Below are positions 11,456-39,813 of a DNA stretch of 64,000 nucleotides, piece after piece. Source of the stretch: Candidatus Eisenbacteria bacterium (GTDB taxonomy: Bacteria > Eisenbacteria > RBG-16-71-46 > JAFGJU01); NCBI GenBank assembly GCA_026388185.1, contig JAPLKG010000011.1, positions 124,001-188,000 of the forward strand, given 5' to 3'. Made by a program: the position numbers and the translations under genes. Numbering within the stretch: position 1 is the first letter of the stretch; each line of letters starts with the position of its first letter. The notes beneath the pieces are model-generated. The model did not search any database and was not told the origin of the DNA. It saw nothing but the letters and a program-made list of their open reading frames with translations.

Positions 11456-12370
11456 ATGAGCAATCTCACAAATCCAGAGTTGATTCGATGGATAGCATGC
11501 CCCGTATGTGACGGAGACTTGGCCAATTCCGTTGAATGGCTAAAATGCACTCGTTGCGGTGCAGAGTACAAAGTTAGGCAAGGTATCCCGCTTTTGTACC
11601 CACCCAGCATGAGTATTGACCATTTGCAGGAAGAAGAGAACCTTTCGAGGATGATGAAGTCACAAAGATTGAATCCAAAGGAGCAATTCAGTTCACTTCA
11701 ATGGAATAATTCTAAGCAAGAGTTTTGGAGCATGGTAAGCGCCAATATACAGGCTCCTCCCAAGTTGTTTATCACCATTGGGTGTGGTTATGATTCCAGT
11801 TTTGTCAAGTTTGAACAACAAGGTTACACGTTTGTCAATTTTGATATAGTCTACGATATACTGGATACGCTCCAGAGAGATTGCGGGGCAAAATCATGTG
11901 TTGGTGGAGACGTGAACAAGTTGCCCTTTAAGAAGAACAACTTTGATTATGTTATCTCCATTGATCTCATACACCATGAAAGCGAAAGAGTTTTCACGCT
12001 ATTAGAGTCTTTTCGAAATTTGCTTAAGCCAGGAGGGATTTTGTTTCTGGAGGATCCAAATGCATGGGGAATGTTCCAAATGGCAAAGTCCATATGGCTT
12101 CCAAAGCCAGTATATAGGTCCTTGAGATCAACATACCATTGGTTCAAACGATCTACTCATAGACCAGCCGACTACGAATTTCCCACAAGTGTATGGCGGG
12201 TGAAAGCCATGCTTCAGTGTTTGGGATTCCAAAACATAAGAATCTACCCAAACACAGCGTACCCCTGCATTGGTGAGTGGGGTTTCCGATTTTACAAGCT
12301 ATTCAGCAACTTTGAATTCATACGCAGGTACCACAACTATCACTATATGCTTAGTGCCACCCGACAGTGA
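11456..12370 (+). CDS. SAM-dependent methyltransferase with N-terminal zinc ribbon
   Basis: A 304-residue class I methyltransferase. Residues 14-35 form a Trm112-like zinc ribbon (CPVCDGDL, CTRCGAEY), common in methyltransferases of surface-sugar clusters. The SAM-binding region begins with LFITIGCGYDSSF, followed by FVNFDI and a post-I acidic motif near GDVNKLPF. The pattern YVISIDLIHH suits a methyltransferase type 11. The gene is AT-richer than its neighbours and isolated between intergenic stretches, so it may have been acquired by transfer. Substrate unknown; a sugar or lipid acceptor is likely from context. Confidence 0.85.
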   Translation: MSNLTNPELIRWIACPVCDGDLANSVEWLKCTRCGAEYKVRQGIPLLYPPSMSIDHLQEEENLSRMMKSQRLNPKEQFSSLQWNNSKQEFWSMVSANIQAPPKLFITIGCGYDSSFVKFEQQGYTFVNFDIVYDILDTLQRDCGAKSCVGGDVNKLPFKKNNFDYVISIDLIHHESERVFTLLESFRNLLKPGGILFLEDPNAWGMFQMAKSIWLPKPVYRSLRSTYHWFKRSTHRPADYEFPTSVWRVKAMLQCLGFQNIRIYPNTAYPCIGEWGFRFYKLFSNFEFIRRYHNYHYMLSATRQ

Positions 12371-12502: not shown

Positions 12503-14620
12503 TCAGAAGCAGAACTCGCAGCCGATGTTGGCTGCCCGTGGCACGTTTGTGCGGTAGACGGTGCGGGAGTAATAATCCAGATAGTCAACGCCCGAGATGT
12601 TCTTGTGATTTGTCAGGTTGAGTCCCTCGACGAACAGTCTGGTGTTCTTTCCGAACGGCGCCCAATTCCGTGCAACCCTCAAGTCAAGCCTGAACTGTAC
12701 CGGCAGTCTTGCCGAATTGTCCTCGCCCCACACCGCCGTGTAAACCACCTGGCCGGTCTCGTCCACGACGGGCGTTGAAGTAGCGTCAACCTGAGCTACC
12801 CTGGCCAGGACCGGCGTGTAGGCGAGGCCGCTCCCGCAGAAAACCCGTGTCGTGACTTCGAGGGATGCCGGCAACCTCGCAAAACAGACCGCCTTTCCCA
12901 CCAGGGTCTGGTCCCAGTCAGTGGGTATGCCCATTATGTCCGCCCTGCCCAGAGAGGCCGTGACGTACGCCCAGTAGTCCTGGTTGTCCATGGGGCTGGA
13001 CAGCGTAACGTCAACGGACCGGAGGGAACCCGTGCCTCCTCTTGACTCGGTACCGTATGCGTCCCTTATCACTAAGTCAGAGTAATCCTGCCTGTTCAAG
13101 TCAATTGTGACGGTCGCCGGACCAATCTCTGCGTCGCAACCCACTACCAGGTGGACGGCTCTCTCCGGCTCCGTGTAGGAGCGCACGAGACCGGCCAGCT
13201 TTCCTTCCCTGAAGGTGCCGCTGATCGGGAACCTGAGGTATTGACCGCCGGCGACTCGGAAAGTGAGATTTCCAAAACGTCTCTCGACCGAAGCGCGGAG
13301 CGCCGGCGCGACACTGGAATTGAGAGCGTCGCAACGGGCACCGAAGGTTACCAGGCAACCGGCGAGGTCCTGGCGGTTCTGAGCGAAGAGAGCGTATTTC
13401 CAGTAGCTGAGAGACTCGTCGCTGTGGGCGAGGGAAGTGTCTGCGATGTCATCGCGACCCGTGTTGAACACGGGCATGAAGTCCCATCCCTCGGTACTTG
13501 TGAACTGGCTCACTTCTTCTTTTCGCACCGAAGCCCCGACGTCCACCACGTGCCAGTTCGTTATCTGAAAAGTACTCTTGTGCGTGATGCCGAAAGACTC
13601 TGCCCTGAGGGAGATGTCGGCAGAGAAGTCGCTCAAGGTTCCCGCGTCCCTCCCCATGAGCCCGTCGGTTGCGTCGTATGCCTCGGTGTCAAAGAAATAG
13701 CCGAGGGAGGTGGTGCGGGTCGTCCTGTTTCCCGTTTCCTGAATGGTGAGCTCGTGACGCTTCTTGACAGTTCGGCTCCTCGCCGTCGCGCTGGTGTACC
13801 TGTCGGCGGAGGCCTCGAGCCTCGTGTCCACTCCACCGAGCGCATAGAAGGTTCTGAGAGAGATCTGCCTGGGGCCAAACACTCTCGACACGGAAGACAT
13901 CAGAGAGTAGGAGCCCGGATAGTTCTCGTCGCTGAGAGAGCCGAGGACTTTGTCGTAGAACGAGGATTCGCAGGAGAGCGCGTAGCTATACTCTTGCAAC
14001 GGTCCACTGATGTTGAGACTACTCTTCACGAGATCGAGAGAGAAGTTGCCCGAGACGCTCCGCGCGACCGTACGTTTTGGCTCGATGAGCACGACTCCCG
14101 AGAGCGCGTCTCCGTATTCTACGGGGAAGGCGCCCTTGAGCAGGCGCAACTGGTCAAACTGCCCGTTCGCAATCGAAGACGTTCCGTAGAGGGTGTAAGG
14201 GTAGCAGTCCGAGAATCCGCCGTAGTAGATTGACACCCAATCGGGCAAGCCACCGTTCACACTGGGTCTAACGAAAAGCTCGTCTCTGGATGTGACACCC
14301 GGCAGCGCCGAGATTGTAGCACGCACGGGGTCGGAGAACGTTCCCGGGGTTCGTTCCGCAAGGCGTCTGTCGAGCCTCGTGGCGAACGGTAGCGAGGTGC
14401 TCGCACCCCACACGGTTATGTCGGCGAGAACGTAAGACTTCTCGCTCCGATCCGGACCGAGAAGAGAGTCGGCACTTTCCAACTGAACCGCGCTCTGCCC
14501 GAAGGCGGGCTCCTCCGCCATGACAGCGCCCGGCGGGTAGGGAACACCCTGCACGGCGAGCCAAACGAAGGCAAACGCCAACACAACACGCACGCTGACT
14601 CTCACTCTTACTCTTTTCAT
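12503..14620 (-). CDS. TonB-dependent outer-membrane receptor
   Basis: A 705-residue outer-membrane transporter that would take up a ligand using TonB energy. A signal peptide follows the chosen ATG (residues 1-about 30, basic then hydrophobic). A plug domain spans about 60-190 (PVRATISALPGV, FVRPSVNGGLPDWVSIYYGG, EYGDALSGVVLIEPKRT), and the rest is a beta-barrel ending in Phe. Starting at the GTG at 14710 would put 30 non-signal residues first, so the ATG at 14618-14620 is preferred. No carboxypeptidase-like or STN domain is evident. Neighbours do not reveal the substrate, and TonB/ExbBD are not in the window. Confidence 0.9.
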   Translation of the reverse strand: MKRVRVRVSVRVVLAFAFVWLAVQGVPYPPGAVMAEEPAFGQSAVQLESADSLLGPDRSEKSYVLADITVWGASTSLPFATRLDRRLAERTPGTFSDPVRATISALPGVTSRDELFVRPSVNGGLPDWVSIYYGGFSDCYPYTLYGTSSIANGQFDQLRLLKGAFPVEYGDALSGVVLIEPKRTVARSVSGNFSLDLVKSSLNISGPLQEYSYALSCESSFYDKVLGSLSDENYPGSYSLMSSVSRVFGPRQISLRTFYALGGVDTRLEASADRYTSATARSRTVKKRHELTIQETGNRTTRTTSLGYFFDTEAYDATDGLMGRDAGTLSDFSADISLRAESFGITHKSTFQITNWHVVDVGASVRKEEVSQFTSTEGWDFMPVFNTGRDDIADTSLAHSDESLSYWKYALFAQNRQDLAGCLVTFGARCDALNSSVAPALRASVERRFGNLTFRVAGGQYLRFPISGTFREGKLAGLVRSYTEPERAVHLVVGCDAEIGPATVTIDLNRQDYSDLVIRDAYGTESRGGTGSLRSVDVTLSSPMDNQDYWAYVTASLGRADIMGIPTDWDQTLVGKAVCFARLPASLEVTTRVFCGSGLAYTPVLARVAQVDATSTPVVDETGQVVYTAVWGEDNSARLPVQFRLDLRVARNWAPFGKNTRLFVEGLNLTNHKNISGVDYLDYYSRTVYRTNVPRAANIGCEFCF

Positions 14621-14902
14621 GCCGTCTCGCAACCCCGAGAAAAGACTCGTACTGATCGTGGCAGCGTAGGTTGTTTGGTTATGCGAGCGACCTACCCGGT
14701 GGTGGCTCACTCAGGTGTAAAACCCACGTCTCGAATCTGTCCGCAGGGCACGGGCAGCCGAGCGATTTGTGCAGTTTATTGAAAAGTCAGTGAGCGTGAG
14801 AGTCCGATGGGATCAAAGTCCACTTCCATGGCACGGACTCTCTGGAGGGCGATCCGATAGAAGGATTATATCACATCCGAGGCCGAAGGTGAAGCGAATT
14901 AT
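14621..14902. other. Intergenic region upstream of the TonB receptor
   Basis: This holds the minus-strand start region of the receptor gene. No promoter of the window's usual form, no ORF and no strong hairpin was seen. It ends where the 225-bp direct repeat begins. Confidence 0.4.
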
Positions 14903-15127
14903 GCGGGACACAGGCGTGGTTGTGATTCGGAGGTCTGCCAGTGCGAGTGACTCTAGCCTCTAACGCTATGCAGAGTCTCTTGCTACAGAAATTCCTTTAT
15001 CGATGCCGCGACGTACTGAATGTGCGAATCGTCGAGCTCCGGATACATGGGCAGGGACAGAACTTCGTGAGAGGCCTTGGTTGCTTCCGGGAAGTCCGCC
15101 TCATTGTGCTTGAGATACGCGTACGCC
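14903..15127. repeat. Direct repeat copy 1 (225 bp), partner at 16856-17080
   Basis: This segment matches 16856-17080 over 225 bp with no gaps and about 15 differences (about 93% identity by eye), in the same orientation. In copy 2 it is the 3' end of an intact aminotransferase gene plus 80 bp beyond its stop. In copy 1 only that tail exists. Both ends are sharp: identity stops abruptly at 14903 and 15127. Confidence 0.93.
14983..15127 (-). pseudogene. Relic: C-terminal 47 codons of a DegT-family aminotransferase
   Basis: Minus-strand translation reads AYLKHNEADFPEATKASHEV then LSLPMYPELDD, almost the same as the last residues of the aminotransferase at 16936-18039. Nothing of the rest of the enzyme is present; upstream DNA belongs to the glycosyltransferase gene. 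The third positions differ more than the protein, so the copy is old or was once under selection elsewhere. Confidence 0.85.
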
Positions 15128-16402
15128 GCCAGGGCGCGCATCGGCTCCATCTTTGAATCGGAACACCGGTTCCAGAATGCCGAAGGCATACATGAATATG
15201 GTCGGTATGAGTGCATTAGAGTACCTGGCTATCGACAGCACAGGCAGATGCAGGAACCAGAACGCTAGCACCATTGCCACGATGAAGCCGTGGATCGATC
15301 TCAGCCCATAGCGTCTGATGTTCCTGAATGCGCAGAAGGCGAAGACCGCGAGCAACGGGAGTTGCAGCAACGCAAGGACCATGCTCTTCTTAGGTGTTTC
15401 GCTGAGCATCCAGAAGAGTGCCAGGTTCATGCCCATCTTCTTCACCAGGAACCCGGGATGGCTTCGGTATCTATCCTTGCACATCTTGAGATAAGCGGAG
15501 TCAATCGCGAGTTCTTTGTCTGCGCCCTTCAGCGATTTCGGGACGCTCGCGCGAACCGCTATCTGGTTAGGCGCGTCCGCTTCCCACAAACCGTACATTG
15601 AGAACGGATGCTGTCGGAAGCTGCTCACGACGGTGTCCCCGAACTCCATATTCTGTCCCATCTTGCCTTGCACCGGGACGATTCTGCCGGACAACATATA
15701 GTTTCTCGCCGTCCACGGAAACACTATCAGGGTCGCCAGAAGGCAGGCCGCCGCGAGCATCTTGATTCTTGAAGCATTCCCCTTCACGAGCCACAAAGCT
15801 GCCGGCAAGATCACGGCAAACGGCAGAAATGTCTGTTTGCACAGCGCGGCTATTCCCAGTGTGACTCCGACTAGCAGCGCGCGCCACCACGTTGGTCGAC
15901 GATGGAACGCCATCGCGGCTGTTATGGCCCCGGTAAATAGGAACATGGACAGCGTTTCCACCCAAATCCTGCTGCAGTACCATAACAGGAACGGATGGAC
16001 CGTTGCTAATGCAGCCGCGACAAGTCCGATTGTCCTACCCCAGAAAGCAGACGCCAGCCAGAATAGCATCAGGACGGTCAGCGCGAACAGGAAGCACTGT
16101 GTGAGTTGGACCGAACCCGGCCACCAGCCGTTCGAGATCATCAACGCCACGGCAATTAGCGCCGGGTAGGCAGGTCCTCTATCCAGCGTAGGCACACGGT
16201 CCGGATAGTAGCTGAAGGCATGGTAATGCAATATGCCCTGCGCAATCGGACCAAAGGAATCGGAGTCAACAACGAGGTGTTCGGAAGACGACATTTTGGG
16301 GAACATCAGGAAGACAAAGATGAGTGACGTAATCAGTCCGAGAAGACACAGAAAGTATACAACTGATGCTCTGCCGCTCAAACGAACCAATAGCGCCGTC
16401 AT
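15101..16402 (-). CDS. Polytopic membrane glycosyltransferase (GT39/ArnT-like), 3' end rearranged
   Basis: A 433-residue protein with about ten hydrophobic segments and a first periplasmic loop holding D-S-D-S-F and PDRVPTLDRGPAYP, the pattern of dolichyl/undecaprenyl-phosphate-sugar glycosyltransferases of clan GT-C (GT39, ArnT). It would transfer a lipid-linked sugar at the outer face of the inner membrane. An AAGGAG site precedes the ATG at 16402. The last seven or so codons (VRVSQAQ) lie in the 225-bp repeat and are aminotransferase DNA in another frame, so the natural C-terminus was replaced by a recombination junction at 15127/15128. The catalytic N-terminal part and nearly all helices remain, so it may still work. 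Confidence 0.8.
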   Translation of the reverse strand: MTALLVRLSGRASVVYFLCLLGLITSLIFVFLMFPKMSSSEHLVVDSDSFGPIAQGILHYHAFSYYPDRVPTLDRGPAYPALIAVALMISNGWWPGSVQLTQCFLFALTVLMLFWLASAFWGRTIGLVAAALATVHPFLLWYCSRIWVETLSMFLFTGAITAAMAFHRRPTWWRALLVGVTLGIAALCKQTFLPFAVILPAALWLVKGNASRIKMLAAACLLATLIVFPWTARNYMLSGRIVPVQGKMGQNMEFGDTVVSSFRQHPFSMYGLWEADAPNQIAVRASVPKSLKGADKELAIDSAYLKMCKDRYRSHPGFLVKKMGMNLALFWMLSETPKKSMVLALLQLPLLAVFAFCAFRNIRRYGLRSIHGFIVAMVLAFWFLHLPVLSIARYSNALIPTIFMYAFGILEPVFRFKDGADARPGGVRVSQAQ

Positions 16403-16486
16403 TCGAAGGACACTCCTTGTGTCCGGGATCTCCCAGCCGGATTCGAGAGTCCCTGTTCTGTGATGATTACCTAGCTGAGCTAGTTC

Positions 16487-16516
16487 AATTTACCACAACT
16501 TGCGAAGGCGAGTCAA
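16487..16516 (-). promoter_or_regulatory. Promoter TTGACT-18-TAAATT for the GT39-like gene
   Basis: On the minus strand TTGACT (plus 16511-16516) lies 18 bp from TAAATT (plus 16487-16492). Transcription would begin about 80 bp before the ATG at 16402. The -10 departs from the TA(T/G)C form of the other promoters. Confidence 0.45.
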
Positions 16517-16549
16517 TGATTCCGAGGCCATTCGGCCATGAGACAGCGC

Positions 16550-16855
16550 CTATGTGCCATACCACAGCGAACATTCCTTTGGGCGGCCAAACACGTTCAC
16601 GGCGGCATAGTAGATCCCGAGAGCGGAGACTACGCACACGAAGAGCATCACCGGCAGCCGGTATCTAGGTATCGCGAGGGTGATCGAAGAGGTCAAAGTG
16701 CTGAGTACGAGTATGGCGTAATTCCATGCTAGCTGCCGTGCATGCTTGCGAACGGCGTACAGGCCAATTGCCGCCAGTCCGAGGAGAATGTAGCGCCAAG
16801 CCCCCGTGATGAGCGTTATTCCATAGGAAATCCGATTCCGTGTCAAGATGCTCGC
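16550..16855 (-). pseudogene. Relic: C-terminal part of a second GT-C glycosyltransferase
   Basis: About 100 codons on the minus strand encode three hydrophobic segments and the phrase LAIPRYRLPVMLF, which is typical of the last helices of GT39-type enzymes (compare SIARYSNALIPT in the intact neighbour). The apparent GTG start at 16864 lies inside the 225-bp repeat, so the ORF begins artificially at the repeat boundary. The catalytic N-terminal half is missing. Confidence 0.7.
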
Positions 16856-17080
16856 GCGGGACACAGGCGCGGCTCTGATTCGGAGGTCTGCCAGTGCGAG
16901 TGACTCTGGCCTCTAACGCCATGCAGCGTCTCTTGCTACAAGAATTCCTTTATCGATGCCGCGACGTACTGAACCTGCGAATCGTCGAGCTCCGGATACA
17001 TGGGCAGGGACAGAACTTCGTGAGAGGCTTTGGTTGCTTCCGGGAAATCCGTCTCACTGTGCTTGAGATACGCGTATGCC
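16856..17080. repeat. Direct repeat copy 2 (225 bp), partner at 14903-15127
   Basis: This is the copy in its probable native setting: it covers the last 145 bp of the intact aminotransferase and 80 bp downstream. The glycosyltransferase relic is joined directly to its downstream edge at 16855/16856. Confidence 0.93.
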
Positions 17081-18039
17081 TTGAGATTCGGAAGCGCGAT
17101 GGGGTAGTGTATTCCGGTGGCGACGCCCTTTGATTTCAGGTGCTCTTGAAGCTGCTTCCGTCGGCTTCCGTTCACTCTTATCACGTACAGATGATACACT
17201 GCCTTGACATCACGGATCTGAACTGGAGTCACGACGTCTGCGCCTTTCAAAAGCTCGCCATACAGACGCGCATTCTTCCGTCGCTTCTCTGTCCATTCCG
17301 GGAGGTGCCGCAGTTTCACTCCCAGTATCGCGGCCTGTAACCCATCCAATCGACTGTTCACGCCCTCAACCTCGTGGTCGTACTTGTCGACTCTTCCGTG
17401 GTTGGCAAACATTCTGACCTTGAGCGCCAACTCATCGCTGTTAGTAACGATGGCTCCGCCGTCGCCGTAAGCGCCGAGGTTCTTTCCGGGGTAGAAGCTG
17501 AAACACGCCGCGTCACCAAACGATCCGACTTGACGGCCTTTGTAAACAGCAGCGTGCGCCTGTGCAGCGTCCTCAATCACTCTGAGACCGCGCCTTCGGG
17601 CAAGTTCCAGAATCGGATCCATGTCGGCGGGTTGTCCATAAAGGTGAACGGGTATGACGGCCTTCGTTCTTGGTGTGATCTTTTGCTCGATTTTGCCTGT
17701 GTCAATGTTGTATGTCTTAGGATCGGCGTCGACGAAGACAACCCTGGCACCGGCCTGCGTGACGGCCTCCGACGTCGCGATGAAGGTGTTTGCCGCAGTG
17801 ATGACTTCGTCTCCTTCACCGATGCCCAGAGCCTTGAGGGTGATGAAGAGAGCGTCCGTGCCGCTTCCTACTCCGATGCAGTGTCGGACGCCGCACGACT
17901 GTGCGAAGGCCTTCTCAAAGGACTTGACGTAAGGTCCTCCGACGAACGCAGATTTCAAAATTACCTCGGCCATGACGCCGTCAATCTCGTTCTTTATGCT
18001 TCCGTATTGTGCCTGAAGATCAACCAGTGGAATGTTCAT
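16936..18039 (-). CDS. DegT/DnrJ/EryC1 family sugar aminotransferase
   Basis: A 367-residue PLP enzyme that should convert a nucleotide keto-sugar to an amino-sugar. Visible marks are GSGTDALFITLKALG (phosphate-binding turn), EDAAQAHAA with the PLP-pairing Asp, and CFSFYPGKNLGAYGDGG with the Schiff-base Lys. The ATG at 18039 is preferred over an upstream in-frame start because AAGGAG lies nine bases before it and the family begins MNIPLVDLQAQ. The C-terminal end lies in a 225-bp direct repeat. Product likely a 3- or 4-amino sugar for surface glycan; the isomer cannot be told. Confidence 0.93.
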   Translation of the reverse strand: MNIPLVDLQAQYGSIKNEIDGVMAEVILKSAFVGGPYVKSFEKAFAQSCGVRHCIGVGSGTDALFITLKALGIGEGDEVITAANTFIATSEAVTQAGARVVFVDADPKTYNIDTGKIEQKITPRTKAVIPVHLYGQPADMDPILELARRRGLRVIEDAAQAHAAVYKGRQVGSFGDAACFSFYPGKNLGAYGDGGAIVTNSDELALKVRMFANHGRVDKYDHEVEGVNSRLDGLQAAILGVKLRHLPEWTEKRRKNARLYGELLKGADVVTPVQIRDVKAVYHLYVIRVNGSRRKQLQEHLKSKGVATGIHYPIALPNLKAYAYLKHSETDFPEATKASHEVLSLPMYPELDDSQVQYVAASIKEFL

Positions 18040-18409
18040 GCGGATTCTCCTTGGGCTACAATGTGACCTTTTCTGCCCCATTCTACGAGACCCTCTCTCA
18101 TGTAACAAGCTGCTTTCTGCATGGACATTGTGATGCCCGGCCAGGCATCGTAACCTTGTAACAGATCCTTTCTGTGTTGCTTTCGTGGTTGGCTACTTCG
18201 TTGAGAACTTGGGGTCGTGACGCGAAAGGAACTTCTTGTAGGTGGTCTGCTCCTTCTTGTGTGCTTTGGACTCGTGAAGATACTTGTTCCTGACCGAGGA
18301 TTGCCCTTGACAACGAACGCAATGGTGGGTTTCCTTACGTCCTAGACAAAGCTCATGTTTCTTTCCATCCGCGGTAGTCAGGAAGGGCGAAGTTTTGAGC
18401 AGGCTCAGG
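18040..18409. other. Divergent intergenic region, 370 bp
   Basis: This lies between the aminotransferase (minus) and the membrane glycosyltransferase (plus). A minus-strand reading at 18193-18370 contains HCVRCQGQS and a Lys-rich tail that might be a degraded protein end, but I cannot assign it. TTGACA at 18308 has no good -10 at the right distance. Confidence 0.35.
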
Positions 18410-25595: not shown

Positions 25596-26723
25596 ATGAT
25601 TCCCGTTTTCAAACCGGCCATAGGTGAAGAGGAACTGGACGCCCTGAGAGAATCCTTTTCTACAGGATGGCTCGGGCTAGGGCCCAAGACCAAGCAGTTT
25701 GAGAACGAGTTTGCCCAGTATCTTGGAACCCGGTTCGCCGTCGGCACCAACTCTGCCACCGCCGCTCTTCATCTTGCTCTGAAGGTGCTTGACCTCGAAG
25801 GCAGCGAGGTGATCACTACCGCTCTGACTTTCGTTTCCACTAACCACGTCATTCTCTACAACAACGCAATTCCTGTCTTTGCCGACGTAGAAGAAGATAC
25901 ATTGAACATAAGTACCGCAGAAATTGAGAGACTATTGTCGCCCAGAACCAAGGCCATTGTAGTAGTTCACTACGGCGGCCATGCATGCGATATGGATCCA
26001 ATTCTGGATCTGGCGAGAGCCAAACACATAAGTGTTGTCGAAGACGCTGCACATGGCTGCGGCGGTGAATACAAAGGGAAGAAGCTTGGTACCTTGGGTG
26101 ACTTAGGATGCTTCAGCTTCCACGCGGTAAAGAACCTCACTACTGGTGAGGGAGGGATGGTAGTTACCCCGTGCGAAGAGTTTGCCGAGAGACTCCGTAG
26201 CCTGCGTTGGCTTGGAATAACCAAGTCCACGTTCGAGAGATCTGGTTCCAACGCTTACTCGTGGGAGTACACAGTGCGCGAGGTGGGCTTCAAGGCGCAC
26301 ATGAACGACATCGCGGCCTGTATTGGTCTGGTTCAGCTCAAGAAGCTTGACGCTCTGAACGAGCGGCGCAGGCAGATTGTGACGAGGTATAATGCTGCTT
26401 TCTCGCGGATGTCGTGGTTAGAACCTCCGGTCGAGAAACCATATGCAAGGAGCGCACATCACAACTACGTCATTAAGGTGCCGCCTTCGGTCAGAGAGGA
26501 GTTGATTTCCTTTCTTGCGGAACAGGGGATAGCAACCAGCGTTCACTACATCCCGAACCATCTCTACCCAGTATATGCGCCCTTCAAGCGGTCACTGCCG
26601 GTCACCGAGAGAGTCTGGAAGCGCCTTGTCACGCTTCCGTTATACCCTGACCTAACTGCGACTGAAATCGAACACATCATCGCCAGCGTTCAGGAGTTCG
26701 GTAGATTACGATGTCTACGGTGA
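25596..26723 (+). CDS. DegT/DnrJ/EryC1 family sugar aminotransferase
   Basis: A 375-residue PLP enzyme making an amino-sugar nucleotide. GTNSATAALHLAL forms the phosphate turn, EDAAHGCGG pairs with the PLP ring, and CFSFHAVKNLTTGEGGM contains the Schiff-base Lys. It is distinct from the enzyme at 16936: its C-terminus reads LPLYPDLTATEIEHI. The next ORF overlaps it by 13 bp. Likely product: a 4-amino-4-deoxy sugar precursor, inferred from resemblance to ArnB/PseC-type enzymes. Confidence 0.92.
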   Translation: MIPVFKPAIGEEELDALRESFSTGWLGLGPKTKQFENEFAQYLGTRFAVGTNSATAALHLALKVLDLEGSEVITTALTFVSTNHVILYNNAIPVFADVEEDTLNISTAEIERLLSPRTKAIVVVHYGGHACDMDPILDLARAKHISVVEDAAHGCGGEYKGKKLGTLGDLGCFSFHAVKNLTTGEGGMVVTPCEEFAERLRSLRWLGITKSTFERSGSNAYSWEYTVREVGFKAHMNDIAACIGLVQLKKLDALNERRRQIVTRYNAAFSRMSWLEPPVEKPYARSAHHNYVIKVPPSVREELISFLAEQGIATSVHYIPNHLYPVYAPFKRSLPVTERVWKRLVTLPLYPDLTATEIEHIIASVQEFGRLRCLR

Positions 26724-34654: not shown

Positions 34655-35647
34655 ATGGAATGTGCAATTATCACCACTTATAGATGCAACGCCAAGTGCG
34701 GCATGTGCAATAGCTGGAAGAACCCCAGCAAAGTTTCGGAAGAATTCAAGCCTGAGATACTGGAGAAGATACCCGGAGGCATGCAGCGTCTGAATATTAC
34801 GGGTGGAGAGCCCTTACTGAGAAGAGACATCGTCGAGATTGTGAGGATTCTTGATAAGAAGACCAGACGACTGGAAATCAGCACCAACGGTTATTTTGTT
34901 GACCAGACGATTGCGATTGCCGAGCAATTCCCCCACATAACGATCCGGGTCAGCGTCGAAGGTCTTCCGGCTTCGAACGATAGACTCCGGGGGCTAGAAG
35001 GTGGGTTCGATCGTGCCATGCGAACGATACTACGATTGAAACGCCTTGGAATAAGGGACATTGGCTTCGCCATGACAATAAGTGGAGACAACTGCCGAGA
35101 CTTGCTAGACGTATATGATCTGGTCGCGTCAATGGATCTGGAATTCGCAAACGCGGTTGTTCATAACTCGTTCTATTTCCATAAATACGACAATGAAATC
35201 AAGAACAGCGAGGAAGTGCAAGCAGTCATGGTCAGTTTTATCGAACAACTGCTCAATTCCCCGCGCAAGAATCTCAAGAAGAGGATGAAAGACTGGTTCA
35301 GGGCTTATCTGAGCCTAGGGTTATTGAGACATGTCCAGGGAAAAGATCGCCCGATACCCTGCGGAGCAGGCACAGATACATTCTTCTTGGATCCTTGGGG
35401 TCGTGTCTTGGCGTGCAATGGTTCTGTAGACCCTATGATTATGGGAGATCTAAGAACACAGTCTTTCGAAGATATATGGCGAAGCGAGCAGGCAAGTGCT
35501 ATAAGGGAACGGGTGGAGAACTGCAGACAGATTTGCTGGATGACGGGAACTGCTGTGCCGGCTATGCGCGGGCATCTCTGGGTGCCCTTACGATGGGTAG
35601 CGAGAAACAAGCTGAGAATGGCTCAAGGCAAACCGTTGTTACTTTGA
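34655..35647 (+). CDS. Radical SAM protein with SPASM-like C-terminal cysteines
   Basis: A 330-residue radical SAM enzyme. The 4Fe-4S motif CNAKCGMC begins at residue 11, followed by the SAM-binding NITGGEPLLRRD. C-terminal cysteines (PCGAGTDTFF, LACNGSVDP, NCRQICW) match a SPASM/twitch-type auxiliary cluster region. Such enzymes modify peptides or sugars; in polysaccharide loci they are thought to carry out sugar epimerisation, dehydration or related steps. The exact reaction is not predictable. Purine-rich GAGGCGGGG lies upstream of the ATG. Confidence 0.88.
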   Translation: MECAIITTYRCNAKCGMCNSWKNPSKVSEEFKPEILEKIPGGMQRLNITGGEPLLRRDIVEIVRILDKKTRRLEISTNGYFVDQTIAIAEQFPHITIRVSVEGLPASNDRLRGLEGGFDRAMRTILRLKRLGIRDIGFAMTISGDNCRDLLDVYDLVASMDLEFANAVVHNSFYFHKYDNEIKNSEEVQAVMVSFIEQLLNSPRKNLKKRMKDWFRAYLSLGLLRHVQGKDRPIPCGAGTDTFFLDPWGRVLACNGSVDPMIMGDLRTQSFEDIWRSEQASAIRERVENCRQICWMTGTAVPAMRGHLWVPLRWVARNKLRMAQGKPLLL

Positions 35648-36772: not shown

Positions 36773-36983
36773 TGTCAGTAGGTGTTGACACAGCTATACA
36801 CTATCCTACGTCTGTCCACGTGCAGTCAGCGTATAGCTCTATCTCAGGCACGGGCAGGGTGATTTTGTCCTTGCCGAGAAGCGGGCGAAAGACATACTCT
36901 CGCTTCCAATGTTCGTGGGGCTGAGACAGGATGAGATGGAGTACGTGGCGAGTGCCATGCGGGCATTCTTGTCCTATGGTTGA
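36773..36983 (+). pseudogene. Relic A: C-terminal part of a DegT-family aminotransferase, frameshifted
   Basis: The first frame reads GVDTAIHYPTSVHVQSAY, the characteristic AIHYP segment close to the end of these enzymes. After a frameshift around 36840-36855, the second frame reads GQGDFVLAEKRAKDILSLP then EMEYVASAMRAFL and a stop. So about the last 70 codons survive in two frames. Bases 36869-36943 are identical to relic B at 38477-38551. Confidence 0.85.
36869..36943. repeat. Direct repeat, 75 bp identical to 38477-38551
   Basis: An uninterrupted 75-bp identity inside aminotransferase relics A and B, in the same orientation, one on each side of the radical SAM gene at 36990. Similarity continues at lower level to the stop codons. 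Confidence 0.93.
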
Positions 36984-36989
36984 TATTCA

Positions 36990-38084
36990 ATGACCCATAC
37001 CGACGTTGGCAGAATGGCGATTCGGAAGATCCGCAGTATTGTTAAAGATCAACTTCTCGTCAGTCGTCTTGTTAGAGGCAGATCGTTTCTGCGTTGTTCT
37101 CCGCAGCTTTCCTTAAGTGATGCTTGCAACTACCGATGTGCCATGTGCTGGATTCACAGTGACCTTGCCGAGAGATCGACGAATCCCGAACGTACTCTGT
37201 TTTTACAGTCGAAACCTCAGATTCTCAAGTATGATGATTTCGTTAGAATTGTGGATGGTCTACACAGAGCTAACGTGAAACAAGTTGATCTTTGTGGCAA
37301 GGGTGAACCGTGTTTGAATCCTCATTTCATCGAGATGTGTCAGTATCTCGATTATCGGGACATACCGTTTCGTTTGACGACCAACGGTTCCTTGCTGGGA
37401 CCAGAAATGTCGAGTTCCCTCATAAAGAGACATGTCTTCTCTATCAGCATCAGCCTCAACGCGGCTGATGAGAGAACTTTTGTGCTTATCAACAAGCCCA
37501 AAGACGCCACATCACTCAATCGAGTAGTAAAAAACATTAGTCATCTTCGAGAGATAAGGAACCAGCTAGGTTCTAACACGAAAATTCAAGTAAGATTTGT
37601 AATCTCGAAGATGAACATTGACACTATTTGCGAAATGATCAGGCTGGGTTTGCTTTTGGGTGACAATGTCGTCTTCATGAATGCAGCAATCTATGACCAG
37701 ATTGACCAGATAGCCCTTGACATGAAGGACTATGACAACATGGTGAAAATCTTTGACGAGTTTAGAAACCAGGATAGGCTAATTGGCGTCAAACACTTCC
37801 TGAGAAAGGTGCGTCAGTCTGCTGTTGACCATCGCTATTTCCTCACGGAACTCTTCGAAACACAACCGTGTAGGATACCTTTTGGTTTTGCCGTGATACA
37901 CGCAGACGGAAGAGTCACTCCCTGCTGTCCCAGTTATTACATTTGCGGCAATGCCATAGAGACGGGTTTTGAGAGACTATGGAATTCAAAGGAATTCCGA
38001 CAGTTCAGAATGGAAGCCTTGGCGTTGCCCGAAAAACGAGAGGAGGCTTCGAAGTCCTACTGCTATTGTTGTGATCATTACTAG
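36990..38084 (+). CDS. Radical SAM/SPASM-like protein
   Basis: A 364-residue radical SAM enzyme. The cluster motif is CNYRCAMC (residues about 47-54), followed by DLCGKGEPCLNPHF as the SAM-binding loop. The C-terminus has C-x-IPFGFAVIHADGRVTPCC and ends in CYCCDH, consistent with auxiliary clusters. It is not a duplicate of the enzyme at 34655; they differ throughout. The gene begins six bases after relic A and ends just before a DNA-methyltransferase relic, so it looks like an inserted single-gene cassette. Start ATG at 36990 or 37014; no strong ribosome site. Confidence 0.87.
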   Translation: MTHTDVGRMAIRKIRSIVKDQLLVSRLVRGRSFLRCSPQLSLSDACNYRCAMCWIHSDLAERSTNPERTLFLQSKPQILKYDDFVRIVDGLHRANVKQVDLCGKGEPCLNPHFIEMCQYLDYRDIPFRLTTNGSLLGPEMSSSLIKRHVFSISISLNAADERTFVLINKPKDATSLNRVVKNISHLREIRNQLGSNTKIQVRFVISKMNIDTICEMIRLGLLLGDNVVFMNAAIYDQIDQIALDMKDYDNMVKIFDEFRNQDRLIGVKHFLRKVRQSAVDHRYFLTELFETQPCRIPFGFAVIHADGRVTPCCPSYYICGNAIETGFERLWNSKEFRQFRMEALALPEKREEASKSYCYCCDHY

Positions 38085-38086
38085 CG

Positions 38087-38272
38087 AAGACTAAGTACGG
38101 CGCGAGGCCTTTTTGGAAGCAGAACTATCCCAAGCTACAGATCCTAACTGTGGAAGAGCTTCTGAAGGGAAAGGGCATCGATATGCCACCGATCCGACAG
38201 GTCGGCACGACGTTCAAGAAGGCTTCGAAGGTGAAGAAGCAGCAAGGGGAGCAACGGGAGTTGCAGGTATGA
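38087..38272 (+). pseudogene. Relic: C-terminal 61 codons of an adenine-specific DNA methyltransferase
   Basis: The frame reads YPKLQILTVEELLKGKGID then PPIRQVGTTFKKASK and a stop. This ending (QILT.EELL.GK.ID.P....TFKKA) is familiar from site-specific DNA adenine methyltransferases of type III-like restriction systems. No catalytic motif (DPPY or FxGxG) is present, since the gene body is missing. Confidence 0.65.
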
Positions 38273-38466
38273 CGCCATGACGGAAAGGCGTAAGAACGGC
38301 ATCGCGCTTGCCCTCGTCAACGACAAGGAAGCTTCGTGATCACGATCTGAAGGAGAAGCACGTTCACGAAACATGGGGTCAAAGGAGCGAATTCACTCTA
38401 TCCATGCAGGCATCCTTAGTGCTAAAGTCGAATCCCTTGAGGAAGAGCTGTCTTGGCTATAGCGAG
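38273..38466 (+). other. Short ORF fragments between relics
   Basis: Two small frames occur. One at 38277-38339 (20 residues, MTERRKNGIALALVNDKEAS) overlaps no other gene and may be the beginning of a lost gene downstream of the methyltransferase. One at 38373-38462 (29 residues) has KERIHSIHAGILSAKVE and a coiled-coil look. Neither has a good ribosome site. I read them as debris. Confidence 0.35.
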
Positions 38467-38594
38467 GGGCTTTTCCCCTTGCCGAGAAGCGGGCGAAAGA
38501 CATACTCTCGCTTCCAATGTTCGTGGGGCTGAGACAGGATGAGATGGAGTATGTCGCAGACGCGATACGGACGTCCTTCAACGCGGGCTTCTGA
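38467..38594 (+). pseudogene. Relic B: C-terminal tail of a DegT-family aminotransferase
   Basis: The frame reads GAFPLAEKRAKDILSLP then DEMEYVADAIRTSF and a stop, the last about 40 codons of a sugar aminotransferase. It shares an exact 75-bp stretch with relic A. Upstream of it, no more of the enzyme can be followed. Confidence 0.85.
38477..38551. repeat. Direct repeat, 75 bp identical to 36869-36943
   Basis: Partner of the repeat in relic A. The interval between the copies, 1.6 kb, contains the radical SAM gene and the DNA-methyltransferase relic. Confidence 0.93.
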
Positions 38595-38622: not shown

Positions 38623-39813
38623 ATGAAAGAACAAGAAGAGAGCCATAGGCACGATCACGTGCTCTTGGTGGGTACGGCAAGGGAATCGGCTGAGATCGTT
38701 TCCATACTGACCAGGTCCGAGGGTTCTGCGTGGGCTCCCGGAGGGCCTTCGAAGTTGGGACTGCTCCTTTCAGGAGAATCACGCATCTCGCGCTCGCATT
38801 CCTTAGACAGAACGGCCGGGCTCTCGGAATCCGTCCGGAAAACTCGCCTTGCATACGTGACTGAAGACCGGAGCGCATCCGATGCGTTTCGCCCCAGCTC
38901 AGATGGGAGCGAGGTTCACCCAGCTTCCGCCATTCCAGCTGGCGTGGCCTCAGGGACAATCTTCTTGAAAGACAAGAACGGCGGAGCACCCGTTGACCGA
39001 CTCTTGCTCGCGCGACAAGATCTGCCGTTGGGAAAGATCTTCAGGATTTGCCTCTCACTTATCCGGAATGGCCATACTGTTCTGGCCGCCTCGCCGGTAT
39101 TCCAGATCATCAAGAAAAGTCACGGCGCCCTCGCTCTCAATGGCCTTCCGCTCGTCAGATTCCGCCCCACAGAGCTCAGGGGCTGGCGTACCCAACTGAA
39201 GAGAGTCGCTGACGTTCTAGGGGCGCTCGTTGGTGCAATTGTCCTTCTTCCGGTTTTCCTCGTGACTGCCGTTCTCATCAAGCTCACCTCTTCAGGCCCT
39301 ATCTTCTTCAAACAAACCAGAATCGGCAAGAATGGGAAGGAGTTCACGTTCTACAAGTTTAGGAGCATGGTGAGCGGCGACGACTCCAAGCACAAGGAAT
39401 ACCTCAAAGCGTTCGTCGAAGATAATCGCGAGGCGGCCGTCGACGGTAACGGGCGCAAGGTTTACAAGATTACAGACGATCCGAGGATCACTCCCTTCGG
39501 GCGCTTCTTGAGAAAAACGAGTCTCGATGAGTTTCCGCAGATCGCAAATGTGCTGAAAGGTGACATGAGTCTGGTGGGGCCGAGGCCCTGCTTGCCTTAC
39601 GAATGGGAGTTCTACGAAGACTGGCAGAAGGAAAGACTCTCCGTAACCCCTGGACTCACCGGATTGTGGCAGGTCACAGGCAGGAGCAACGTCAGTTTTC
39701 GAGACATGGTCATACTGGACCTGTATTACATCTCGAATTGGTCTTTCTGGTGGGATTTGAAGTTGATTCTCCAAACAATACCTGTTATCTTGCTCGGTAA
39801 GGGCGCCCATTGA
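38623..39813 (+). CDS. Polyprenyl-phosphate sugar-1-phosphate transferase (WbaP/PglC-type)
   Basis: A 396-residue initiating phosphoglycosyltransferase that puts the first sugar phosphate on undecaprenyl phosphate. The C-terminal catalytic module (about 200-396) has a reentrant hydrophobic helix (VGAIVLLPVFLVTAVLI), then GPIFFKQTRIGKNGKEF and KFRSM, KTSLDEFPQIANVL and SLVGPRPCLPYE. The N-terminal about 190 residues lack the four membrane helices of WbaP; instead DHVLLVGTARESAEIV looks like a Rossmann-type start. The ATG at 38623 avoids reading into relic B, as the longer frame from 38539 does. Confidence 0.9.
   Translation: MKEQEESHRHDHVLLVGTARESAEIVSILTRSEGSAWAPGGPSKLGLLLSGESRISRSHSLDRTAGLSESVRKTRLAYVTEDRSASDAFRPSSDGSEVHPASAIPAGVASGTIFLKDKNGGAPVDRLLLARQDLPLGKIFRICLSLIRNGHTVLAASPVFQIIKKSHGALALNGLPLVRFRPTELRGWRTQLKRVADVLGALVGAIVLLPVFLVTAVLIKLTSSGPIFFKQTRIGKNGKEFTFYKFRSMVSGDDSKHKEYLKAFVEDNREAAVDGNGRKVYKITDDPRITPFGRFLRKTSLDEFPQIANVLKGDMSLVGPRPCLPYEWEFYEDWQKERLSVTPGLTGLWQVTGRSNVSFRDMVILDLYYISNWSFWWDLKLILQTIPVILLGKGAH

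What the first reader, a model, noticed from the sequence alone, without database searches (positions are those of the whole stretch)
36773..38594. Second pair of aminotransferase tails flanking a radical SAM gene
Seen: relic A (36773-36983, frameshifted) and relic B (38467-38594) share 75 identical bases and further similarity up to their stops, in the same orientation, on either side of the radical SAM gene at 36990 and a DNA-methyltransferase tail. Their sequence (SLPMFVGLRQDE) differs from the first pair (SLPMYPELDD). Inference: a cassette entered or moved by recombination at aminotransferase ends.
Basis: partly seen in the sequence, partly recalled or inferred. Interest (0 to 1): 0.6.

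Follow-up and report, generated by a model that had tools for sequence, protein, structure and literature searches.

The report
Dead aminotransferase tails in sugar cluster
Two decayed pieces of a sugar-aminotransferase gene flank a foreign-looking radical SAM gene in a bacterial surface-polysaccharide cluster; they look like ordinary scars of gene swapping and show no sign of an active mobile element.

Summary
The repeat is real: 75 identical bases (36869-36943 = 38477-38551) in two same-strand pieces of a DegT/DnrJ/EryC1-type aminotransferase. Relic B is larger than described. Ahead of its tail lies a frameshifted middle piece of the same gene, with about 78 codons missing between the two. 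The parent was found. In the nearest usable relative (G002, same family) an intact degT stands directly upstream of the same sugar transferase-oxidoreductase-hexapeptide-Wzi block that follows relic B, with no radical SAM interval. The window's genome has no intact orthologue. The identical core is bounded by ends only 50% alike, as different from each other as from G002. So A and B come from two long-diverged degT genes that share one exchange tract and are not a simple recent duplication. Best reading: polysaccharide-cluster remodelling by recombination within a degT 3' end, then decay. No tyrosine integrase in the window, inverted repeats, plasmid or phage match, or copy in relatives points to a mobile cassette. 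Such gene remnants are known from Salmonella O-antigen clusters. Interest is low; current excision and the order of events cannot be tested here.

The parts
36775..36983 (+). Relic A: last ~66 codons of a DegT-family aminotransferase, frameshifted around 36840-36846, own stop at 36981-36983
   Evidence: Custom DegT profile hits 36775-36846 (14.6 bits) and 36840-36971 (28.0 bits); read-through peptide 59.3 bits; Pfam PF01041 E 0.0089 for the 41-aa tail
36869..36943 (+). 75-nt core, copy 1, identical to 38477-38551
36990..38084 (+). Intact radical SAM/SPASM gene (364 aa) that begins 6 bases after relic A's stop; GC 44.9% against 55-59% for flanking backbone genes
   Evidence: PF04055 E 1.3e-14, PF13186 E 1e-12; below every NCBIfam cut-off shown; GC; only 24-26% relatives in the class
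38084..38269 (+). C-terminal relic of an N6_N4_Mtase + Mrr-like DNA methyltransferase
   Evidence: 53% identical over 53 aa, E 8.3e-15, to the end of an intact homologue at G000:C11:41290-41448; that homologue carries PF01555 and a PF04471/PF22722 domain
38326..38462 (+). Relic B, middle piece of degT (profile positions ~210-249), with a frameshift near 38378
   Evidence: tblastn with G002 DegT, profile 21.6 bits, best of 2000 shuffles 7.1
38463..38594 (+). Relic B, tail of degT (profile ~329-366 and stop), joined to the middle piece by a deletion of ~78 codons
   Evidence: profile 26.2 bits; Pfam PF01041 E 0.0016
38477..38551 (+). 75-nt core, copy 2
38623..39813 (+). Polyprenyl glycosylphosphotransferase (sugar transferase); first gene of the conserved block that fixes the ancestral position of degT
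   Evidence: TIGR03025 305.4 bits over cut-off 295.55; orthologue 70% identical in G002 directly after intact degT

Best explanation
The window lies in a surface-polysaccharide biosynthesis locus. The ancestral order at its right edge was degT aminotransferase - sugar transferase - Gfo/Idh/MocA oxidoreductase - hexapeptide transferase - Wzi. In this lineage new genes (glycosyltransferases, radical SAM) were brought in by recombination, and the resident degT was broken and lost. DNA carrying a second, diverged degT, whose next gene was probably the radical SAM gene, recombined with the resident degT at its 3' end. The exchange left a 75-bp identical tract, with relic A leading into the radical SAM gene and relic B leading into the resident sugar transferase. 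A single-crossover (Campbell-like) insertion or an unequal crossover gives this layout directly. Later deletions and frameshifts eroded both copies, and a methyltransferase fragment was left between them. Shown: homology, order, mosaic identity, decay, the intact parent in a relative, and absence of an intact orthologue here. Inferred: that the tract marks a crossover and not a later gene conversion, the foreign origin of the radical SAM gene, and the order of events.
For: G002 has intact degT at 1251493-1252668, then the sugar transferase ORF 3 bases later, then the same oxidoreductase (71%), hexapeptide (71%) and Wzi (59%) genes. Its DegT tail is the best match of relic A outside this genome (53%, E 2.8e-18). 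The closest homologues of that DegT in G014, G011 and G008 also lie just upstream of a sugar transferase. No intact orthologue in this genome; best 47% and 41%. Core 75/75, 3' end 20/40, A and B equally far from G002 in that end (20/40, 18/40). The radical SAM gene has the lowest GC of the main cluster and no close relative in 47 genomes of the class.
Against: No same-genus genome is held, so neither the empty site nor the donor operon (intact degT followed by this radical SAM gene) was seen. The two distant radical SAM homologues in the class have no degT within their flanks. The 75-bp tract could equally be a gene conversion between two relics already in place.
Confidence: 0.62

Rival explanations
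1. Two tandem degT genes once stood here with the radical SAM gene between them; both decayed in place, and a later short gene conversion made 75 bases identical. No insertion took place between the tails.
For: Both relics have decayed independently (different truncations and frameshifts), and their ends are as different as long-separated homologues.
Against: G002 and the other ST-linked loci show a single degT next to the sugar transferase with no radical SAM gene; the GC of the interval is low.
Confidence: 0.2
2. Plain recent duplication of one degT tail that came with insertion of the radical SAM gene (template switching or slippage), or a TSD-like duplication.
For: 75 exact bases in the same orientation flank the gene.
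Against: The last 40 bases before the stops are only 50% identical, although both still fit the DegT profile; a recent duplication would be alike throughout.
Confidence: 0.06
3. An att-flanked integrative cassette inserted at a degT 3' end by a site-specific recombinase and still able to excise.
For: Integration at gene 3' ends leaves an identical core with diverged flanks and a displaced tail, which resembles this layout; the first pair also has a tail displaced by ~2 kb.
Against: No PF00589 integrase in the window; the nearest on this contig is ~140 kb away. The interval holds one gene plus scraps. The two pairs do not share a core. No phage, plasmid or viral match.
Confidence: 0.04
4. Assembly chimera or strain mixture: two strain variants of the locus joined at the 75-bp identical stretch.
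For: The genome is in 20 contigs, and identical stretches are where assemblers mis-join; only one assembly is held.
Against: 75 bp is shorter than ordinary reads; the relics differ in decay on both sides of the core, which a mis-join of allelic copies would not need.
Confidence: 0.08

Closest known systems
Gene remnants in Salmonella O-antigen clusters (wzy remnants between wbaV and wbaU; PMC3715488)
   Same: Polysaccharide locus with dead pieces of a replaced gene at the place where gene content changes; remnants of the same gene shortened along different paths; a partial duplication of the gene in one form
   Different: There the gene is the polymerase wzy and IS fragments are present; here it is a degT aminotransferase, no IS was identified, and the two remnants share an exchange tract.
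DegT/DnrJ/EryC1/StrS aminotransferase next to an initiating sugar transferase in bacterial polysaccharide loci
   Same: Same gene order as the intact locus of G002 and, at lower identity, of G004, G014, G011 and contig JAJFUS010000046
   Different: In the window the aminotransferase is reduced to two non-coding relics.
Integrative elements that insert at the 3' end of a protein gene (for example PAISt at bacA, PMC4057263, abstract)
   Same: A gene 3' end found on both sides of foreign DNA
   Different: No integrase, no transfer genes and no common core between the two tail pairs of this window; it resembles such an element in layout at most.

Membership tests
DegT/DnrJ/EryC1/StrS aminotransferase (PF01041) | Sequence match to the family profile | tested here: met
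   Tails match only the C-terminal 34 profile positions, below Pfam's cut-off (15.7 and 18.1 against 19.8 bits); custom profile 59.3 and 31.2 bits; synteny with intact degT
DegT/DnrJ/EryC1/StrS aminotransferase (PF01041) | Complete fold with PLP-binding lysine region, as a functional enzyme needs | tested here: not met
   The relics hold profile positions 302-367 (A) and ~210-249 + 329-366 (B), with frameshifts; they are pseudogenes
Gene-remnant scar of polysaccharide cluster remodelling | Remnant of a gene that is intact at the same place in a relative | tested here: met
   Intact degT directly upstream of the orthologous sugar transferase in G002
Gene-remnant scar of polysaccharide cluster remodelling | Replacing genes differ between relatives | tested here: met
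   Radical SAM gene absent from G001 and G002; G002 has a different GT4 directly before degT
Integrative element at a gene 3' end | Integrase or recombinase gene within the element | tested here: not met
   No PF00589 match in the window; serine recombinases were not searched
Integrative element at a gene 3' end | Excised or empty form, or the element at a degT end in other genomes | tested here: inconclusive
   No DNA match in 59 relatives beyond two short weak ones; no reads available
Transposon or IS | Terminal inverted repeats at the ends of the interval | tested here: not met
   No inverted repeat pair at the interval's ends; no inverted 25-mer in the window

The most novel reading that the evidence does not exclude
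DegT 3' ends serve as recurrent recombination ports in this lineage: both tail pairs of the window would be separate uses of aminotransferase gene ends for taking up single-gene modules into the polysaccharide locus, with some modules still able to leave by recombination across the direct repeats.
Probability: 0.06. Interest if true: 0.5.

Novelty: new member of a known kind. Interest (0 to 1): 0.17.

Why it matters
It documents at base resolution how one surface-sugar gene was lost while others were brought in, in a little-studied lineage, and it names the intact ancestral locus. Its value is mainly local: it explains the repeats and removes the need to invoke a mobile cassette. It would matter more only if sister genomes showed repeated exchanges at the same gene end.

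Tried and rejected
DNA of relic A in 59 relatives: two short weak hits only. Nucleotide comparison of the relics with the four intact degT genes of this genome: nothing above background, so none of them is the recent parent. Radical SAM gene in viral contigs: no relative. Plasmid and phage DNA: no match. Degenerate pattern of the core in viral contigs: none. Single-protein scan of genome contigs with the sugar transferase: only distant loci, one with degT just upstream. DNA-level alignment of the A 5' part with G002: not above shuffles, so that homology rests on protein-level matches. RNA families: none; promoter-like sites as in shuffles, and the terminator-like sites (5 against 1.8 expected) lie outside the relics, so no reason was found for the tails to be kept as regulatory DNA. 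Other gap peptides, including a hydrophobic tail at 16553-16912 and the methyltransferase tail itself: no Pfam match.

Full report
What was checked. Two same-strand copies at 36858-36970 and 38466-38578 are 87% identical over 113 bases, with an exact core of 75 bases at 36869-36943 and 38477-38551. This is far beyond chance.

What the pieces are. It finds two intact genes (16936-18108 minus, 25596-26723 plus), the first pair's relic (14983-15144 minus), relic A (36775-36846 and, in another frame, 36840-36971) and relic B (38463-38579), plus a weak hit at 38355-38444. That weak hit and the 18 codons before it form a frameshifted middle piece of the same gene: 'RKLRDHDLKEKHVHETWG / SKERIHSIHAGILSAKVESLEE' scores 21.6 bits at profile positions 210-249, against a best of 7.1 in 2000 shuffles. 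It was also found by tblastn with the DegT of relative G002. So relic B is a degT with its start missing, about 78 codons deleted inside, and its tail kept. Relic A is the last 66 or so codons, frameshifted. Both are pseudogenes. Pfam sees the tails only below its cut-off.

The interval. The gene at 36990-38084 is an intact radical SAM/SPASM protein, below every NCBIfam cut-off shown, with distant relatives (24-26%) in two genomes of the class and none in the two same-family genomes. Its GC of 44.9% is the lowest in the main cluster; the neighbouring backbone genes have 55-59%. It starts 6 bases after relic A's stop, which suggests that it travelled as the gene downstream of degT A (inference). 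Directly after it lies the end of a DNA methyltransferase (38084-38269). The matching intact protein in this genome, about 120 kb away on the same contig, has N6_N4_Mtase and Mrr-like domains, and the tails are 53% identical. So the piece is from a different homologue.

The parent. In G002, the only same-family genome with an orthologue of the sugar transferase at 38623-39813, the order is GT4 glycosyltransferase, intact DegT (1251493-1252668), sugar transferase, oxidoreductase (71%), hexapeptide protein (71%), Wzi (59%). The last four are the block that follows relic B in the window. The DegT of G002 is the best match of relic A outside this genome. Its closest homologues in G014, G011 and G008 also lie just upstream of a sugar transferase, as does a DegT in G004 and in contig JAJFUS010000046. 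This genome has no intact orthologue; its best are 47% and 41% (completeness 97.9%). The ancestral gene was therefore degT directly before the sugar transferase, and it was lost here. The interval 36990-38466 is absent from the syntenic site of G002. Among the tail matches in 47 genomes of the class, only this genome has tails in short open frames.

How the two copies relate. Aligned codon by codon, the relics are 7/11, 75/75 and 20/40 identical before, within and after the core; none of 200,000 permutations gives such a run. The same core is 52/75 identical to G002, so conservation does not explain it. In the last 40 bases A and B are as different from each other as from G002 (20/40, 20/40, 18/40). 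The copies therefore come from two long-separated degT genes that exchanged a short tract; a simple recent duplication would be alike throughout. A crossover in the degT 3' end between resident and incoming DNA, by single-crossover insertion or unequal crossing-over, gives exactly this layout: resident 5' part, core, incoming 3' end and radical SAM gene, then incoming 5' part, core, resident 3' end and sugar transferase. A later gene conversion between two resident copies is the main alternative. The order of events is inferred.

What it is not. No tyrosine integrase lies in the window, no inverted repeats bound the interval, no plasmid or phage DNA matches, the core pattern is absent from viral contigs, and no RNA family was found. 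The first pair differs in kind: it is 93% identical over 225 bases, includes about 80 bases beyond the stop, and its parent gene is intact. The two pairs share no core.

Comparison with the known. Dead pieces of replaced genes in polysaccharide clusters are established. In Salmonella galactose-initiated O-antigen clusters, wzy remnants sit between wbaV and wbaU, differ in which parts survive, and one form has a partial duplication of the gene (PMC3715488). The present case is another example with a different gene in a little-studied lineage.

Verdict. Observation confirmed and extended; interpretation partly supported (recombination at a degT end, yes; a moving cassette, not shown). A new member of a known kind, of low general interest.

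Noticed in passing
14903-17080 (minus strand): First pair: an intact DegT gene (16936-18108) has a 225-base, 93% identical tail copy at 14903-15127 that includes ~80 bases past the stop; an intact PMT-like gene (15101-16402) lies between and its reading frame runs into the tail copy.
   Followed up: partly
16553-16850 (minus strand): A ~95-residue hydrophobic reading frame ('ITLITGAWRYILLGLAAIGLYAVRKH...RYRLPVMLFVC...') follows the degT flank and looks like another gene tail of membrane-glycosyltransferase type; Pfam gives no match. If real, every relic recognised here is a gene tail or middle and none is a gene head.
   Followed up: partly
34655-35647 and 36990-38084: Two unrelated-looking radical SAM/SPASM genes, neither above an NCBIfam cut-off shown, lie within one polysaccharide cluster.
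   Followed up: no
12503-14710 (minus strand): 735-aa open frame without any Pfam or NCBIfam match.
   Followed up: no
11456-12370: Methyltransferase gene with 43% GC in a 57% GC neighbourhood, probably acquired.
   Followed up: no
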